Positions 1,419-7,029 of a stretch of DNA of 7,039 nucleotides are shown here, in pieces. How positions within the stretch are numbered: position 1 is the stretch's first letter; the number at the start of each line of letters is the position of its first letter. This stretch comes from Spirochaetales bacterium (GTDB lineage: Bacteria; Spirochaetota; Spirochaetia; DSM-16054; Sediminispirochaetaceae): the NCBI GenBank assembly GCA_021767325.1, contig JAASTM010000115.1, positions 1-7,039 of the forward strand, given 5' to 3'. Position numbers and translations under genes: made by a program. The notes under the pieces are model-generated. The model was not told where the DNA came from, ran no database searches, and saw only the letters and a list, made by a program, of their open reading frames with translations.

Positions 1419-1427
1419 TGTGGATAA
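1419..1427 (-). promoter_or_regulatory. DnaA box (perfect TTATCCACA)
   Basis: The plus strand reads TGTGGATAA, the exact complement of the high-affinity box TTATCCACA. It is bracketed by a 5-bp inverted repeat, GGGAA (1410-1414) and TTCCC (1429-1433). It lies 229 bp upstream of the dnaA start. Confidence 0.85.
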
Positions 1428-1655: not shown

Positions 1656-3413
1656 ATGGAAGGCGATACACAGCAGTGGGACTACAGTATTTTCTGGAAA
1701 GAGGCGCTGAATCAGATTAGACAGCATATCTCTGAACAGGAATATGTTATGTGGTTTCGTAATTTACAGTACTATGCATCTCGTGAAAACGAGATAATTC
1801 TTGCTGTCCCCTCATCTTTTTATCGGGATCAGGTAAAGCAGCGCTATCTTAAACTGATCCAGGATACGCTGTTCGATCTCTCCGGAATGTCGATTCAGGT
1901 GAGCTTCGAGATAGTCAAGCTGCAACCGCCGGCCGACCACTCGGCTCAAAAGGACGGATCACAGGCTGCTGGATCCAATGACAGCACCGGTCAAATAGGG
2001 CGAGGCCATGCACAGCAGCCTGTGGATAGCTCGGCGCCGGCCGATTCCGGCACGTCCGCTACTCATCCATCTGACGATCTACCTAGAACAGGCGGCTCTG
2101 AAAACGGTGCAGGCCCATCAAAGACGGAAAGCTCTTTTTCTACGGAAAAAAATACTCGAGAAGATAAAGGACAAAAAACAGGTTCGAAATCTTCTATAAT
2201 CATTGATCCCCATGCTGACCGTTCTGGTTCCGGCATGCATGCAGACAGCAGCCGTGCAGCTGCGTTCGATGCGGCGCCACGCCAGGATCAGCATCAGCCC
2301 GGCCCATACCCGCAGACTCAGCAGAGTGGTTCGCCGAGGGCTGGAAGCACCCCGGGCTCACAGCTGAACCTGCGCAAGCACAACGAGCTGCGTATCGACT
2401 ACACCTTTGAGAACTTTGTGGTCGGCGATAACAACTCCTTCGCCGCCAACGCCTGTATCGCTATCTCGAAGAATCCCGGTACAGCGTATAACCCCTGTCT
2501 TATTTACGGAGGGGTTGGGCTCGGCAAGACACACCTGATTCAGTCGATCGGCAATTACGTGCACAATACCTATGAAAAGACGCGGGTGGTGTATGTTACC
2601 GCCGAGACTTTTACCAATGAGTTTATCCAGTCGATCCGGGATGGGAAGAACCATCAGTTCAAAAACCGGTACCGGAATGTGGACGTGTTGCTGATCGACG
2701 ATATTCACTTTCTACAGAGTAAGGATCAGACTCAGGAGGAGCTCTTTCACACCTTCAATGCCTTGTATGATTCCAACAAGCAGATGGTGTTTACCTGTGA
2801 CCGGCCGGTATCGGAGCTCAAGCATCTCACCGACCGTCTGCGCAGCCGCTTCGAGCGCGGGTTGAATGTCGACCTGCAGCCGCCGAACTACGAAACCCGC
2901 TATGCGATTCTCAAGCGTAAAACCGAGGAGAAGCGGGCGGCCATCGATGAACAGGTAATTGAGCTCATCTCGAAGAATATCACCACCAATGTGCGTGACC
3001 TGGAAGCTGCGCTGACAAAACTTATCGCCTACAGCGATATCCTCAACAAAAAGATTACAGTGGATATTGCACAGGAGCAGCTCAAGGATGTGTTTTCCAG
3101 CCCTAAGCAGAGCAATATCACCATCGAGATCATTCAGCGGGCGGTGGCCGATTACTTCAATCTGTCGCCGTACGATCTGCGGGGTAAAAAGCGTACCAAG
3201 GCCATCGCCTTTCCACGGCAGATCGCCATGTACATCACCCGTGAAATTACCGAATTTTCGACTACCGAAGTTGGCCTGGAGTTCGGCGGACGGGATCATA
3301 CCACTGTGATGCACGCCTGCCAGCGGATCGAAAGCCGAATGCAGACCGATCCCTATCTGGAGCCGACCATTCAGCGGCTGATCAGGCAGATAAAGGAGTA
3401 TGGGACGAAATAG
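1656..3413 (+). CDS. dnaA: Chromosomal replication initiator protein DnaA
   Basis: DnaA is the AAA+ initiator that binds DnaA boxes, forms an ATP-dependent filament, opens the origin and recruits helicase; it also represses its own gene. Domain I (about residues 8-88) carries the WF-x-x-LQ segment (W33) used for oligomerisation and helicase contact. Domain II (about 89-238) is a Ser/Gly/Gln/Asp/Ala-rich, probably disordered linker. Domain III has Walker A GGVGLGKT (285-292, K291), Walker B LLIDD (345-349), and the RLRSRFERGL arginine-finger region. Domain IV ends with the helix-turn-helix signature GGRDHTTVMHAC (544-555) that reads DnaA boxes. At 585 residues it is well above the usual 440-470, and the excess is all in domain II. 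The ATG is supported by GGAG 6 nt upstream and by domain I starting at once. The gene is flanked on both sides by DnaA boxes. Confidence 0.98.
   Translation: MEGDTQQWDYSIFWKEALNQIRQHISEQEYVMWFRNLQYYASRENEIILAVPSSFYRDQVKQRYLKLIQDTLFDLSGMSIQVSFEIVKLQPPADHSAQKDGSQAAGSNDSTGQIGRGHAQQPVDSSAPADSGTSATHPSDDLPRTGGSENGAGPSKTESSFSTEKNTREDKGQKTGSKSSIIIDPHADRSGSGMHADSSRAAAFDAAPRQDQHQPGPYPQTQQSGSPRAGSTPGSQLNLRKHNELRIDYTFENFVVGDNNSFAANACIAISKNPGTAYNPCLIYGGVGLGKTHLIQSIGNYVHNTYEKTRVVYVTAETFTNEFIQSIRDGKNHQFKNRYRNVDVLLIDDIHFLQSKDQTQEELFHTFNALYDSNKQMVFTCDRPVSELKHLTDRLRSRFERGLNVDLQPPNYETRYAILKRKTEEKRAAIDEQVIELISKNITTNVRDLEAALTKLIAYSDILNKKITVDIAQEQLKDVFSSPKQSNITIEIIQRAVADYFNLSPYDLRGKKRTKAIAFPRQIAMYITREITEFSTTEVGLEFGGRDHTTVMHACQRIESRMQTDPYLEPTIQRLIRQIKEYGTK
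2021..2029 (-). promoter_or_regulatory. Possible DnaA box inside dnaA (one mismatch)
   Basis: The plus strand reads TGTGGATAG, one base off TGTGGATAA, within the part of dnaA that encodes the domain II linker. A two-mismatch CCATGCACA lies nearby (2007-2015 region). It may be chance. Confidence 0.25.
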
Positions 3414-3516: not shown

Positions 3517-3556
3517 TGCGGGAAAGATTGTGGGAAAGCGCGGGTGATTGTGATTT

Positions 3557-3565
3557 TGTGTATAA
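3557..3565 (-). promoter_or_regulatory. DnaA box (TTATACACA)
   Basis: The plus strand reads TGTGTATAA, whose complement TTATACACA fits the TTATNCACA consensus exactly. It faces the box at 3631-3639. Confidence 0.75.
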
Positions 3566-3630
3566 ACCTGCAGAAAAGTTATTGAGTTTTCCAGGATGAT
3601 AATCTACCGTATGAGGTACAGTTAGGAGGC

Positions 3631-3639
3631 TTATGCACA
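3631..3639 (+). promoter_or_regulatory. DnaA box (TTATGCACA) at the edge of the unwinding element
   Basis: TTATGCACA fits TTATNCACA exactly. A second, weaker box, ATATCCACC (3639-3647, two mismatches from TTATCCACA), abuts it in the same orientation, so two DnaA molecules could load side by side toward the CTA repeats. Confidence 0.8.
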
Positions 3640-3677
3640 TATCCACCGGCCCTACTACTACTATTACTGATTATTAA
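3633..3677 (+). CDS. Possible 14-codon leader ORF upstream of dnaN (doubtful)
   Basis: An ATG inside the DnaA box opens a 14-residue frame, MHISTGPTTTITDY, ending in TAA at 3675-3677. A perfect AGGAGG (3624-3629) precedes it, but only 3 nt before the ATG, which is closer than usual. The threonine run is simply the CTA repeat read in the ACT frame, so the frame may be a by-product of the DnaA-trios. It is not in frame with dnaN and ends 31 nt before it. Translation would make it a leader of the dnaN transcript; no function is claimed. Confidence 0.2.
   Translation: MHISTGPTTTITDY
3643..3675 (+). other. Putative basal unwinding element: GC patch plus DnaA-trios
   Basis: Directly after the DnaA box pair comes a GC-rich patch (CCACCGGCCC, 3643-3652). 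It runs into triplets CTA (3652-3654, 3655-3657, 3658-3660, 3661-3663), TTA (3664-3666) and CTG (3667-3669), then ATTATTAATTT. Read on the minus strand away from the box this is 3'-GAT four times, then AAT and GAC, the DnaA-trio pattern described for Bacillus subtilis and found widely in bacterial origins. DnaA would extend from the boxes onto single-stranded trios and melt the AT-rich DNA beyond, next to dnaN. The layout is seen directly; activity as the opening site is inferred. Confidence 0.75.
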
Positions 3678-3698
3678 TTTAAAAGAACCATAAAGATA

Positions 3699-3708: not shown

Positions 3709-4812
3709 ATGAAGTTTACCTGTGAGAAAAATACCATACAAAAAGAGATCTCAATAGCTCAGGAAATTATCTCAACCCGCAATGCCCTCTCGATTCTATC
3801 GAATGTATTGCTGGTAGCTGAAAACAACACTCTCACCATCAAAGCTACCGATTTGAAGGTGGGCTTTGAAACCCAGATTCCCGCCGATATCGCCGAGGAA
3901 GGCAGTACAACCGTTTTTTGTGATAAGTTTCTGGGAATTCTTCGTTCTCTTCCCGATGGTGATATCGAGTTCGAACAGACGGACAACCGGCTGCTCATCA
4001 AACCGCTGTTTAAGAAGATCAATTTTCAGCTCAAGAGTATTGCCGGAGACAAATTCCCGGAGCTGCAGGAAATATCCGAGGATCAGTTCTTTGAAATCCC
4101 GCAGAAGGATGTGATCGAGATGGTCAGCCAGACCATTTTCGCGGTGAGCGATGATGAGACCCGCTATTTTATGAACGGTGTGTATCTGGAAAACCAGGAA
4201 GGCGGTCTCTCGATGGTCGCTACCGACGGACGGCGGCTGAGCTTTATATCCAAAGAGTTTGAAAATCAGATCCCCGAGTTCGATCCGGTTATCATACCAC
4301 CGAAGGTCCTGCAGCTGCTGCGCAAGCTGGCCAGTGGCGAAGGCAACCTGCGCCTGGCGGTGGGCGAAAAAAACCTGTTTATGCAGTTCGAGAATCAGCG
4401 TATCTCTTCCAGCCTGATCGAGGGGCAGTTTCCCAACTACAAGCGGGTTATCCCCGACCAGCAGCAGTATGAGATTACAATCGACAAGCCGCAGTTCGAA
4501 GAGGCCCTAAAGCGGGTCTCGCTGCTGGTTGAGCAGAAGTCGCGCCGGATCTACCTGAACCTCTCTGAAAACAATATCACCCTCACCTCCGAGGAGAGCG
4601 AAATCGGGGTGGCCAAGGAAGAGGTGGAGTGCGATTACGACGGACCGGAGATGACCGTCGCCCTGAATTATCTCTATCTGACCGAACCGCTGCGTGTGAT
4701 CAGCGATGAGGAGATTCTCGTCCGGTTTACCGAGCCGAACAAGGCCATCACCCTGCTCTCCAAACCGGAGAGAGAGTTTTTCCACATCGTGATGCCGATG
4801 CAGCTAGACTGA
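3709..4812 (+). CDS. dnaN: DNA polymerase III beta subunit (sliding clamp)
   Basis: DnaN forms the head-to-tail dimeric ring that encircles DNA and tethers polymerase III and many repair proteins. At 367 residues it has the standard family length, with three repeated clamp domains (about 1-120, 125-245, 246-367). Family marks are the N-terminus MKFTCEKN, the central TDGRRLS segment (E. coli TDGHRLA), the GQFPNYKRVIP segment before domain III, and the C-terminal IVMPMQL, which forms part of the hydrophobic pocket that binds clamp-binding motifs; one extra Asp follows. No insertions are seen, in contrast to its neighbours. It lies 295 bp after dnaA, behind the putative origin, and its stop codon is 4 bp from the recF start, so the two are probably cotranscribed and translationally coupled. 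Confidence 0.98.
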   Translation: MKFTCEKNTIQKEISIAQEIISTRNALSILSNVLLVAENNTLTIKATDLKVGFETQIPADIAEEGSTTVFCDKFLGILRSLPDGDIEFEQTDNRLLIKPLFKKINFQLKSIAGDKFPELQEISEDQFFEIPQKDVIEMVSQTIFAVSDDETRYFMNGVYLENQEGGLSMVATDGRRLSFISKEFENQIPEFDPVIIPPKVLQLLRKLASGEGNLRLAVGEKNLFMQFENQRISSSLIEGQFPNYKRVIPDQQQYEITIDKPQFEEALKRVSLLVEQKSRRIYLNLSENNITLTSEESEIGVAKEEVECDYDGPEMTVALNYLYLTEPLRVISDEEILVRFTEPNKAITLLSKPEREFFHIVMPMQLD

Positions 4813-4816
4813 TGGA

Positions 4817-6283
4817 ATGGCGTTCACATCGATAACAAGCTACTCCTACCGCAATCTCCAGGACCAGAAGGTAGCGCTGAATGCCCGCCGGATCTTCCTG
4901 GTCGGTGAGAACGGCCAGGGAAAAAGCAATTTCCTGGAGGCGGTGTATCTGCTCTCCTACGGCAGCAGTTTCCGCACCAAACGCGAAAATGAACTCATAA
5001 CCCGCGGAAAGCGGGAAATGGCCCTGAACGGCCGTTATATACGCCCTGAGGAAGACGATGTGGAAGGCACGGTGGCCTTCAAGCTGGCTGGCGGCGGATC
5101 GGCCATTTCCGCCGGAGGTGCTGCCCCGCCCGGAGGTGGGCAGTCGAGCGGGGCTGTCTCGGCTGGCGAGGCCGCCAGTGAGTCCGCTGGGGCGGCCGGT
5201 GAGTCCGGTGCAGGAGCCGGAGAGAGCAACGCCTCCCCTGGCCGCCCGGCCTCTGCGGCCGGGAGTTCCCGCGGCAGTGCTTCCAAAGAGAAAATTATCG
5301 AGCTGGATGGTAAGCGTCTGCAGGACCGCAAACAGCTCATCTCGCATATCCCGGCCATCGTGTTCAGCCACGAGGATATCTACTTCGTGAACGGGCCTCC
5401 GGAGCGGCGCCGCTGGTTTTTCAACCAGACCATGAGCCTCTTCGATCCAATGTTTATCGACACCCTGCGCGACTACAGCAAAATTCTGAAAATGCGCAAC
5501 CTGGCCCTCAAAGAGCAGCGCAGCGACCTGATTCCCGTATACGATCAGCAGCTGGCTGCCGCCGGAATAGAAATCCAGCGGCGCCGGGCAGAGGTAATCC
5601 GAGAATTCAACCAGGTGGTAGCACCAATCTTCAGCCAGGTCTCCACAATCTCCGAACCACTGGCCATCGAATACCGCCCCTCCTGGCCGCGGGGGCAAGC
5701 CCGGCAAGATCAGTCTCAGCGCGGGACGGCCGGCGAACAGGTCGATTCGGTCGAGCAGTCTGAGTCGGTTGAGCCGCCCGGCCAGTCCGACCCTGCCCCC
5801 AGTCTCGACCGGGTCTGCGATTATCTGGCGGACAAGCGGGAGCAAGACCTCCTCTACGGCACCACCTCCAGCGGACCTCACCGCGACCGGTTTGTGTTCC
5901 GCCTGTCCGGAACCGATTTTGCCCGGATTGCCTCTACTGGACAGCTGCGGCTCATGTCGCTTATATTGAGATTAGGCCAGTGCCGCTATTTTTCGCAGAA
6001 AACCGGGCGCCGGCCGATCTTACTGCTGGACGATGTACTGCTCGAGCTGGACGGTGAGCGCCGCAAGCGCTTTCTTTCGCATTTGCCCGACTTTGAACAG
6101 GCCTTTTTTACTTTTCTGCCGGACGAAAAATATCTCGATCTGGCGCAGGCCGGCACCGGCTCAGCGGGAACCGACGGTCAGTACGATTCCGAAACAGCAA
6201 TTTTCTGGGTGGAAAACGGATGGATCCGAAAGATGAACACGGAGCAGACAGCCCGTACAACACAGACAGACCCGAAGACATAG
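4817..6283 (+). CDS. recF: DNA replication and repair protein RecF, with two low-complexity insertions
   Basis: RecF is an SMC/Rad50-like ABC ATPase that binds gapped DNA and, with RecO and RecR, loads RecA at single-strand gaps and stalled forks. Visible motifs are Walker A GENGQGKSN (30-38, K36), the FSHEDIYFVNGPPERRR region (183-199), SGPHRDR (352-358), an ABC signature written STGQLRL (373-379), Walker B ILLLDD (401-406) and the D-loop LELD (409-412). The protein is 488 residues against about 360 in E. coli. The excess comes from a Gly/Ala/Ser-rich insertion at about 91-155, a Gln/Ser/Glu/Pro-rich one at about 291-328, and a short C-terminal tail. All ATPase motifs are intact and the flanks align, so it is probably functional. 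An ATG at 4812 overlaps the dnaN stop but is in another frame; ATG 4817 gives the canonical N-terminus. No strong Shine-Dalgarno is seen, consistent with coupling to dnaN. Confidence 0.95.
   Translation: MAFTSITSYSYRNLQDQKVALNARRIFLVGENGQGKSNFLEAVYLLSYGSSFRTKRENELITRGKREMALNGRYIRPEEDDVEGTVAFKLAGGGSAISAGGAAPPGGGQSSGAVSAGEAASESAGAAGESGAGAGESNASPGRPASAAGSSRGSASKEKIIELDGKRLQDRKQLISHIPAIVFSHEDIYFVNGPPERRRWFFNQTMSLFDPMFIDTLRDYSKILKMRNLALKEQRSDLIPVYDQQLAAAGIEIQRRRAEVIREFNQVVAPIFSQVSTISEPLAIEYRPSWPRGQARQDQSQRGTAGEQVDSVEQSESVEPPGQSDPAPSLDRVCDYLADKREQDLLYGTTSSGPHRDRFVFRLSGTDFARIASTGQLRLMSLILRLGQCRYFSQKTGRRPILLLDDVLLELDGERRKRFLSHLPDFEQAFFTFLPDEKYLDLAQAGTGSAGTDGQYDSETAIFWVENGWIRKMNTEQTARTTQTDPKT
5180..5242 (+). 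repeat. Three degenerate 21-bp tandem units inside recF
   Basis: Three in-frame units at 5180-5200, 5201-5221 and 5222-5242 encode ESAGAAG, ESGAGAG and ESNASPG (RecF residues 122-142). Units 1 and 2 share 15 of 21 bases, including an identical GAGTCCG start; unit 3 is more diverged. It looks like an old in-frame tandem duplication that built up the first RecF insertion. Confidence 0.6.
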
Positions 6284-7029
6284 ACTCTGAGGAGAAAAGG
6301 GCCGGTGCTTCGCACCATTCTTCGAACAACAGGGGGGGCGCTGAGGACAGGAGCGGCGACCAGTCTGCCAAGGCACATCAGGATCCGGACACCGTTCCTG
6401 ACTGGTCCGAGCTCGGCCGCGGCACCCGCAAAAGCCCGAAGGGCGTGCGTGAGATCCTCAAAGCATACTTCAACGACACCCAAATCGACCGGGCCGATCA
6501 ATATCACAGCTTTTTTACCAGCTGGAAGCAGCTGGCCGGCATCAATATCGCCGCCCACACCAGTCCCCGGGATATCCGCGGCAGTGTGCTCATCGTCGAA
6601 GCCGACCATCCCGGCTGGGTCCAGCTGCTGCACATGCAAAAGCGCACCATTCTTCGTAAGATTAGGCGGGAGTATCCGCAGCTGGAAGTCAAGGATATCC
6701 GCATCGTGGTTGGGGATGGCGAGGGAAATTATGGAAAAAGTTCCAATGCACCAGTCGAGTCGGCCAGCGCCGGGCCCTCGAGTGGGGAGTCCATACAGCC
6801 CTCGAAGCCGCCTGAGCCGAACGTTTCCGAGACCTCCCCTACCCCACAGGATTCGGACCAAGCTCGACAGCAGTCACAACAGGCGCCCGCACCAGAAGCG
6901 CCGGAGGAAGAACCGGAGGAGGAGCGGCAGTACAAGCGCAGGTTCGAGCAGGCGCTGCAGAAGCTGGGCAAACGTGTTGAGGAGCGCGGCCGCGGGGACG
7001 ATACCAAAAACGAAACCGGCGACCAGTAG
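6220..7029 (+). CDS. dciA: DUF721 family protein, DciA-type helicase loader/operator
   Basis: DUF721 proteins (DciA) interact with the replicative helicase DnaB and are thought to be the ancestral bacterial helicase loader. The domain occupies about residues 72-166, with the two conserved tryptophan segments SWKQLAG (101-107) and GWVQLLHMQK (132-141) and a final strand IRIVVG (160-165). Before it is a hydrophilic, probably disordered 70-residue N-terminus. After it are about 70 residues rich in Pro/Ser/Gln/Glu and a predicted charged helix (about 236-257) before the stop. At 269 residues it is longer than many family members, which often have little beyond the domain. The ATG at 6220 is the only methionine ahead of the domain in this frame and has a weak GGTGGA about 6-11 nt upstream; it lies inside recF, giving a 64-bp overlap. 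The start is less certain than the gene. Family assignment rests on recognised motifs and the position after recF. Confidence 0.85.
   Translation: MDPKDEHGADSPYNTDRPEDIDSEEKRAGASHHSSNNRGGAEDRSGDQSAKAHQDPDTVPDWSELGRGTRKSPKGVREILKAYFNDTQIDRADQYHSFFTSWKQLAGINIAAHTSPRDIRGSVLIVEADHPGWVQLLHMQKRTILRKIRREYPQLEVKDIRIVVGDGEGNYGKSSNAPVESASAGPSSGESIQPSKPPEPNVSETSPTPQDSDQARQQSQQAPAPEAPEEEPEEERQYKRRFEQALQKLGKRVEERGRGDDTKNETGDQ

What the first reader, a model, noticed from the sequence alone, without database searches (positions are those of the whole stretch)
3624..3680. Candidate basal unwinding system (DnaA box pair, GC patch, DnaA-trios) upstream of dnaN
The order TTATGCACA, abutting weaker box ATATCCACC, GC-rich CCACCGGCCC, then (CTA)4-TTA-CTG and AT-rich DNA follows the box/GC-patch/trio architecture described for the B. 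subtilis origin (3'-GAT trinucleotides on one strand). Four perfect trios in a row plus two near matches is unlikely by chance at this spot. It places the probable opening site downstream of dnaA, not in the longer, more AT-rich region upstream.
Basis: partly seen in the sequence, partly recalled or inferred. Interest (0 to 1): 0.8.

Follow-up and report, generated by a model that had tools for sequence, protein, structure and literature searches.

The report
Spirochaete chromosome origin opening site
The short stretch between dnaA and dnaN looks like the place where this spirochaete's chromosome is first pulled apart for copying, built to the plan known from Bacillus subtilis; the plan itself is not new, but the close match across many spirochaetes is a useful confirmation.

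Summary
In detail: box TTATGCACA (3631-3639), box ATATCCACC (3639-3647, one base shared), GGCC (3648-3651), (CTA)4-TTA-CTG (3652-3669), then AT-rich DNA. A profile trained without the window and its nearest relative scores the site 51.3 bits; the next best place in the window scores 14.9. The window comes from an uncultured spirochaete. Of 65 relatives' dnaA-dnaN spacers chosen only by dnaN, 61 keep at least four of six trios, 60 the box, 56 both. Of 130 profile hits fetched from the phylum, 111 lie between dnaA and dnaN. In 140 nonredundant origins the triplet phase lasts six trios, then ends, and the best box usually starts 21 bp before the first trio. Further DnaA boxes stand on a roughly 10-bp ladder beginning 44 bp upstream, as engineered B. 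subtilis origins require. Trio-holding DnaA residues are largely kept. This is a Bacillus-type basal unwinding system, a new member of a known kind, in a phylum with DciA and almost no DnaD. Some deep branches lack a clear one. Unexplained: a palindrome near the boxes in many relatives. No melting was measured.

The parts
3631..3639 (+). DnaA box 1, TTATGCACA (one mismatch to TTWTCCACA)
   Evidence: sequence; best box starts 21 bp before the first trio in 92.3 of 140 origins, ties shared
3639..3647 (+). weaker DnaA box 2, ATATCCACC, sharing one base with box 1
   Evidence: sequence; this place is the more variable one in relatives
3648..3651 (+). GC linker GGCC
   Evidence: sequence; 4-bp place between box 2 and trio 1 in the relatives' alignment
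3652..3669 (-). six DnaA-trios; plus strand CTA CTA CTA CTA TTA CTG, recognised strand 3'-GAT-5' etc. is the minus strand
   Evidence: sequence; middle base kept through trio 6 and not beyond in 140 origins and in 65 not chosen by the model
3670..3690 (.). AT-rich tract, probable first melted DNA (inferred)
   Evidence: sequence; place inferred from published systems
3587..3595 (+). weak forward DnaA box TTTTCCAGG at -44 (two mismatches)
   Evidence: -44 is one of two preferred forward positions in relatives
3557..3565 (-). distal DnaA box at -74, TTATACACA on the minus strand (one mismatch)
   Evidence: 65 of 122 origins have a reverse box at -71..-76
3529..3537 (-). distal DnaA box at -102, TTTCCCACA on the minus strand (one mismatch)
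   Evidence: 32 of 122 origins have a reverse box at -99..-104
1419..1427 (-). consensus DnaA box TTATCCACA upstream of dnaA
1611..1619 (-). consensus DnaA box TTATCCACA upstream of dnaA
1517..1543 (.). palindrome-like site TTAATTTGTTGCAGCAAATAGAATTAT, about 112 bp before dnaA; function unknown
   Evidence: 12.1 bits, best in the window
3599..3625 (.). degenerate counterpart of the same palindrome beside the BUS (1.9 bits)
1656..3413 (+). dnaA; keeps most trio-contact residues (N321, I324, I327, K356, E362; K336 in place of R202)
3709..4812 (+). dnaN, sliding clamp
6220..7029 (+). DciA-family helicase-loading protein, last gene of the cluster
   Evidence: PF05258, 65.4 bits

Best explanation
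A basal unwinding system of the B. subtilis incC type. DnaA binds box 1, aided by box 2. Bound protomers reach over the GGCC linker and set their AAA+ domains on the minus strand, capturing the first two bases of each 3'-GAT-5' trio in pockets between neighbours. Six trios hold a filament of about seven DnaA, which stretches the strand and melts the duplex rightwards into the AT-rich tract before dnaN. Distal boxes at -74 and -102 (and a weak one at -44) supply DnaA through a DNA loop. Helicase loading follows, probably with DciA. Shown here: the sequence anatomy, its conservation, phase and spacing, conserved DnaA contact residues, a DciA gene in the cluster. Inferred from published work on B. 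subtilis: filament, base capture, loop, direction of melting. Not shown: melting or origin activity in this organism.
For: Site scores 51.3 bits with a profile trained on 64 relatives without the window and L001. 56 of 65 relatives chosen only by dnaN keep both box and trios (register fitted on the same spacers). Where dnaN lacks dnaA upstream, 13 of 14 scorable regions score -17.8 or less. 111 of 130 fetched hits lie between dnaA and dnaN. Six-trio limit equals the six trios of B. subtilis, CTACTATTACTTCTACTA (passage), and the six trios per seven DnaA of the cryo-EM work (section). Distal boxes on a helical ladder as in engineered B. subtilis origins (section). DnaA residues: N187 kept in 174, K222 in 173, E228 in 182 of 182 DnaA matches, not made nonredundant. 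C. difficile, with unwinding mapped downstream of dnaA, has CACCTACTACTATTACTACTATGA there (passage). B. burgdorferi DnaA binds the dnaA-dnaN spacer in gel shifts (passages).
Against: No melting or replication data for this organism. R202 is K in the window and in 166 of 182 matches, N196 is G in the window. 178 of 392 genomes gave no model hit; in 3 of 9 such genomes with dnaA ahead of dnaN no BUS could be recognised. Four-fold-site GC skew is inconclusive: dnaA is lower than dnaN in 74 of 107 but lower than gyrB in only 20 of 39. The upstream spacer has two consensus boxes and could share in opening.
Confidence: 0.9

Rival explanations
1. The main opening site is the longer AT-rich gyrB-dnaA spacer; the downstream element only regulates dnaN or titrates DnaA.
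For: Two consensus DnaA boxes upstream (1419, 1611); loose-rule hits on its minus strand (5, at most 4 triplets); skew test does not separate dnaA from gyrB.
Against: No strict trios in that spacer on either strand; best profile score there is 14.9 against 51.3. In three genomes with dnaA and dnaN apart a BUS with boxes was found away from dnaN (L093, L094, L095).
Confidence: 0.06
2. The triplets are codons of a leader peptide before dnaN: AGGAGG, then ATG at 3632, would give MHISTGPTTTITDY.
For: A ribosome-site-like AGGAG and an ATG reading through the trios exist in the window.
Against: Of 140 nonredundant origins, 59 have some ATG frame through the trios but only 7, the window among them, have a start with a ribosome-site-like stretch, in different frames. 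Distance from the first trio to dnaN varies, for example 43 to 280 bp in the fetched loci, while box and trios stay together.
Confidence: 0.02
3. Chance run of triplets in an AT-rich spacer.
For: Loose published rule is met by chance in 3-32% of simulated spacers.
Against: Strict arrangement 0 of 20,000 simulated spacers and conserved in relatives.
Confidence: 0.01

Closest known systems
B. subtilis incC basal unwinding system (PMC6669920 section 6; PMC10721633 section 9)
   Same: Between dnaA and dnaN; box pair, GC linker, six trios in one phase; distal boxes no nearer than about 44 bp and in helical phase; trio-contact residues of DnaA.
   Different: Box 1 has G for C at position 5, which relatives vary; R202 is K; DciA present and DnaD/DnaB-type domain nearly absent in the phylum. 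Native box 6/7 sequence is recalled, only the trio part was seen in print.
C. difficile oriC2 (PMC7561715, passages)
   Same: Downstream of dnaA, trio run CTACTACTATTACTACTA before an AT-rich element; unwinding there was mapped.
   Different: Other phylum; both spacers were needed for melting in vitro.
Borrelia burgdorferi oriC (PMC9879097, passages)
   Same: Spirochaete; origin placed between dnaA and dnaN; DnaA binds that spacer and the gyrB-dnaA spacer in gel shifts.
   Different: Trios were not mentioned in the passages seen.

Membership tests
Basal unwinding system (BUS) | DnaA box (single or pair) next to the trios, box strand fixed | tested here: met
Basal unwinding system (BUS) | spacer from the first box end within the published limit (<=16 bp; 12 bp here) | tested here: met
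Basal unwinding system (BUS) | at least three trios 3'-NAN-5', preferably GAT, in one phase | tested here: met
   five standard trios plus CTG
Basal unwinding system (BUS) | DnaA residues that capture the trio bases | tested here: met
   N187, I190, I193, K222, E228 kept, R202 replaced by K
Basal unwinding system (BUS) | distal DnaA box at least 44 bp upstream, helically phased (B. subtilis) | tested here: met
   boxes at -74 and -102 in the window; ladder in 122 origins
Basal unwinding system (BUS) | DnaA-dependent strand separation needing boxes and trios | not testable with these tools
   needs purified DnaA
Chromosome origin oriC | base-composition switch at the site | tested here: inconclusive
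   four-fold-site skew; no genome held for the window
Chromosome origin oriC | peak of marker frequency | not testable with these tools
   needs cultured cells
Leader peptide of dnaN | conserved start codon, ribosome site and frame | tested here: not met
   7 of 140 origins have start and ribosome-site-like stretch

The most novel reading that the evidence does not exclude
Spirochaete origins carry, inside the loop between the distal boxes and the BUS, a palindrome (TAATTCnTTnnnnnnnAAnGAATTA, centre 19 bp before box 1) for an unidentified, probably dimeric DNA-binding protein. It also stands about 110 bp before dnaA in many relatives and in this window, and at several to dozens of other places in some genomes, some of them directly behind tRNA genes. 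That protein would be a new architectural or regulatory factor of replication initiation, shaping or guarding the DnaA loop much as IHF does in E. coli.
Probability: 0.35. Interest if true: 0.65.

Novelty: new member of a known kind. Interest (0 to 1): 0.42.

Why it matters
It gives evolutionary support, from another phylum, for rules found by engineering one B. subtilis origin: six trios, one register, distal boxes no nearer than about 44 bp and in helical phase. It shows the trio strand kept where DnaD, which in B. subtilis reads the opposite strand, is nearly absent, so DnaA alone can explain the conservation. It gives spirochaete workers an exact place to test and points to an unexplained palindrome beside the origin.

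Tried and rejected
Hbb (the Borrelia HU-family protein) as binder of the palindrome: not supported. The Hbb-bound sequence quoted in PMC12854757 is ATACTATATGTC and the paper calls its binding nonspecific (passages).

A shift of the whole distal box block by one helical turn: not supported; near and far classes are not correlated (Fisher p 1.0 and 0.18).

Palindrome as a general inverted repeat: in a free search, arms near box 1 are hardly better than arms 45 bp further upstream (19 against 16 of 140 with score >=7; shuffles 7.8). Only the fixed-position test is strong, and its profile was built from the same sequences. No simulation was run for the gyrB-dnaA spacers.

Palindrome sites crowding near the origin: looked at by eye in the positions, not computed; no clear bias in the complete genome with 18 sites.

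Middle-base changes as a test of the published amine rule (cytosine can replace adenine): in trios 1-5 the plus-strand changes are A 14, G 13, C 9 (summed); not decisive.

Four-fold-site skew as a locator of the origin: inconclusive.

The full B. subtilis box-GC-trio sequence was not found in print here; only the trio part. A text search for it gave three unrelated papers.

Full report
What is there. The window runs gyrB (minus, 2-1201), a 454-bp spacer, dnaA (1656-3413), a 295-bp spacer, dnaN (3709-4812), recF (4817-6283) and a DciA-family gene (6220-7029) (gyrB and recF named by their relatives and recall, recF also by its SMC_N match). The nearest dnaN relative is a Spirochaetia metagenome genome at 92% identity (L001). 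In the second spacer lie TTATGCACA (3631-3639), ATATCCACC (3639-3647), GGCC (3648-3651), CTA CTA CTA CTA TTA CTG (3652-3669), then ATTATTAATTTAAAAG.

More than chance? In 20,000 first-order Markov copies of the spacer, (CTA)4 occurred 0 times, ([CT]TA)5 once, and box + 12 bp + four [CT]TA trios 0 times. A 54-column profile trained on 64 relatives, without the window and L001, scores the site 51.3 bits. The next best place on either strand of the window is 14.9 (minus strand, 1464-1517, in the gyrB-dnaA spacer, without strict trios); 2,000 simulated dnaA-dnaN spacers reach at most 12.2. The loose rule used in print (method section) is met by chance in 3 to 32% of simulated spacers.

Relatives not chosen for the element. 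A dnaN search confirmed 118 places and kept 80 loci. In 65 of the 80, dnaA ends within 700 bp of dnaN. Of these 65, 61 have at least four of six trios of the form [CT]T[AG], 48 have the first three so, 60 have a box with at most two mismatches at 20-22 bp, 56 have both (the register was set by a profile fitted to these same spacers). The other 15 loci have no dnaA there; one is too short to score; 13 of the remaining 14 score -17.8 or less and one scores 28.4, which is L027 (28.5). In that genome dnaA lies about 5 kb away with gyrB between, and the BUS is beside dnaN.

The phylum. A sequence-only model (R1, 35 sequences) hit 214 of 392 spirochaete genomes at E <= 0.01, with strict filters. I examined 130 of the best-scoring listed hits (30 given as loci, 100 fetched; the list itself was cut): 111 lie between dnaA and dnaN, 3 beside dnaA only, 13 beside dnaN only, 3 beside neither. 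Of the 178 genomes without a hit I looked at 20: 18 have a dnaN match at 26-41% identity (best match of each), 9 of the 18 have dnaA ahead of dnaN, and of these 9 six show a degenerate BUS (13.9 to 21.9) and three do not (5.3, 5.2, -6.1). The element is common, not universal.

Fine anatomy. From 199 origins (seven weak or duplicate loci left out) 140 are less than 70% identical over 105 bp. With the box sought freely within 60 bp, its start is 21 bp before the first trio in 92.3 of 140 (ties shared), 20 bp in 14, 13 bp in 11.5, 18 bp in 6, 22 bp in 3. The middle base of the triplet is T on the plus strand in 139, 136, 130, 126, 133 and 118 of 140 for trios 1 to 6, then in 74 and 85 for the next two. 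The 65 relatives not chosen by the model show the same fall: 65, 64, 57, 56, 63, 61, then 44 and 34. B. subtilis has six trios, CTACTATTACTTCTACTA (passage of PMC10201434), and the cryo-EM work describes six trios engaging seven DnaA (section of PMC10721633).

Distal boxes. In the 122 of 140 origins whose box 1 has at most two mismatches I listed every further box with at most one mismatch between -130 and -12. Forward boxes stand mostly near -44 and -54 (43 of 122 origins), reverse boxes near -74, -82, -102 and -112 (65, 41, 32 and 22 of 122); 2 of 122 have a reverse box in the gaps between these, 4 of 122 have any box nearer than 38 bp, and 113 of 122 have at least one distal box (the bins were set after seeing the histogram, and a few reverse boxes stand at -40 to -42 and near -123). 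Best periods are 10.8 bp (forward) and 9.7 bp (reverse); with random shifts per sequence the periodicity reached at most 0.41 and 0.33 in 2,000 trials against 0.77 and 0.70 observed. In engineered B. subtilis origins the distal box had to be at least 44 bp upstream and showed helical phasing for three turns (section of PMC6669920). The window has reverse boxes at -74 and -102, one mismatch each, and a weak forward one at -44, two mismatches. Related sequences are not independent, so these figures are not probabilities.

The protein. Aligned to B. subtilis DnaA of PDB 8btg, the window's DnaA keeps E183, N187, I190, I193, K222 and E228; R202 is K, E223 is D, N196 is G. In 182 spirochaete DnaA matches, not made nonredundant, N187 is N in 174, E228 is E in 182, K222 is K in 173, I190 is I in 118, R202 is K in 166 and R in 10. 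DnaD/DnaB-type domains (PF07261) appear in 2 of 100 spirochaete genomes, barely over the cut-off; DciA in 93 of 100. In B. subtilis DnaD reads the other strand of the trios (passage); here the trios are kept where DnaD is nearly absent.

How it most likely works. DnaA on box 1 and box 2 is handed to the minus strand across the GGCC linker, captures bases of six trios and melts the AT-rich tract before dnaN; distal boxes supply DnaA through a loop; DciA assists helicase loading. Everything beyond the anatomy is inference from published systems.

A palindrome beside the BUS. Columns upstream of box 1 show a two-fold symmetric motif at fixed distance, TAATTCnTTnnnnnnnAAnGAATTA, centre -19. 114 of 140 origins have a site of at least 6 bits within 110 bp against 23 from simulation, 108 of the 114 within one base of the same place (profile from the same sequences). 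Of 51 complete gyrB-dnaA spacers 35 score 8.0 or more, 23 of these 35 at 96-130 bp before dnaA (no simulation). The window's strong copy is there, 1517-1543 (12.1 bits); its copy beside the BUS is degenerate (1.9 bits). In ten genomes, chosen because most had good copies at the origin, the pattern with up to two mismatches occurs 6-44 times against 0-4 for the reversed control; with one mismatch it occurs in 8 of 12 other or overlapping genomes (1-18 times, control 0) and not in 4. Of 28 sites looked at (20 chosen by hand in three genomes, 8 from one complete genome), 7 lie within 12 bases of the 3' end of a tRNA gene. I do not know what binds it.

What is in print. In the held library 43 papers hold 'DnaA-trio' (listing), none also 'Spirochaetes' (the spelling spirochete was not combined with it). 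The main text of PMC8287927 has none of spiroch-, borrel-, treponem-, leptospir-; its supplementary tables could not be read and may list spirochaete origins among its 1755 of 2070 predicted ones. B. burgdorferi DnaA binds the dnaA-dnaN spacer in gel shifts (passages of PMC9879097).

Verdict. The finding is right and is a new member of a known kind. The added value is the tight match of register, trio number and phased distal boxes across a second phylum, and the unexplained palindrome.

Noticed in passing
1517-1543 in the window; upstream of box 1 in L025, L044, L046, L052, L093: Palindrome TAATTCnTTnnnnnnnAAnGAATTA at fixed distance from the BUS and upstream of dnaA in many relatives, also elsewhere in genomes; 7 of 28 sampled sites stand directly behind a tRNA gene.
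   Followed up: partly
L085:2862-2945 (same place as L094); L095: Two termite-gut spirochaete origins have a second trio run on the opposite strand facing the first across an AT-rich core, with a dense array of DnaA boxes upstream.
   Followed up: partly
L093 (G005:C40), L095 (G001:C25), L027 (G009:C129): The BUS can part from its usual neighbours: with neither dnaA nor dnaN within 1.5 kb (L093), 2.5 kb past dnaA (L095), or beside dnaN with dnaA about 5 kb away (L027). These are metagenome bins, so wrong binning is possible for L093.
   Followed up: partly
3624-3673: AGGAGG followed by ATG within box 1 opens a 14-codon frame, MHISTGPTTTITDY, through the trios; not kept in relatives.
   Followed up: yes
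6220-7029: A DciA-family gene closes the dnaA-dnaN-recF cluster, so initiator, origin, clamp and helicase-loading protein lie together.
   Followed up: partly
4817-6283: The recF product is 488 aa with two long low-complexity inserts rich in Gly, Ala, Ser and Gln; dnaA also has a long low-complexity linker.
   Followed up: no
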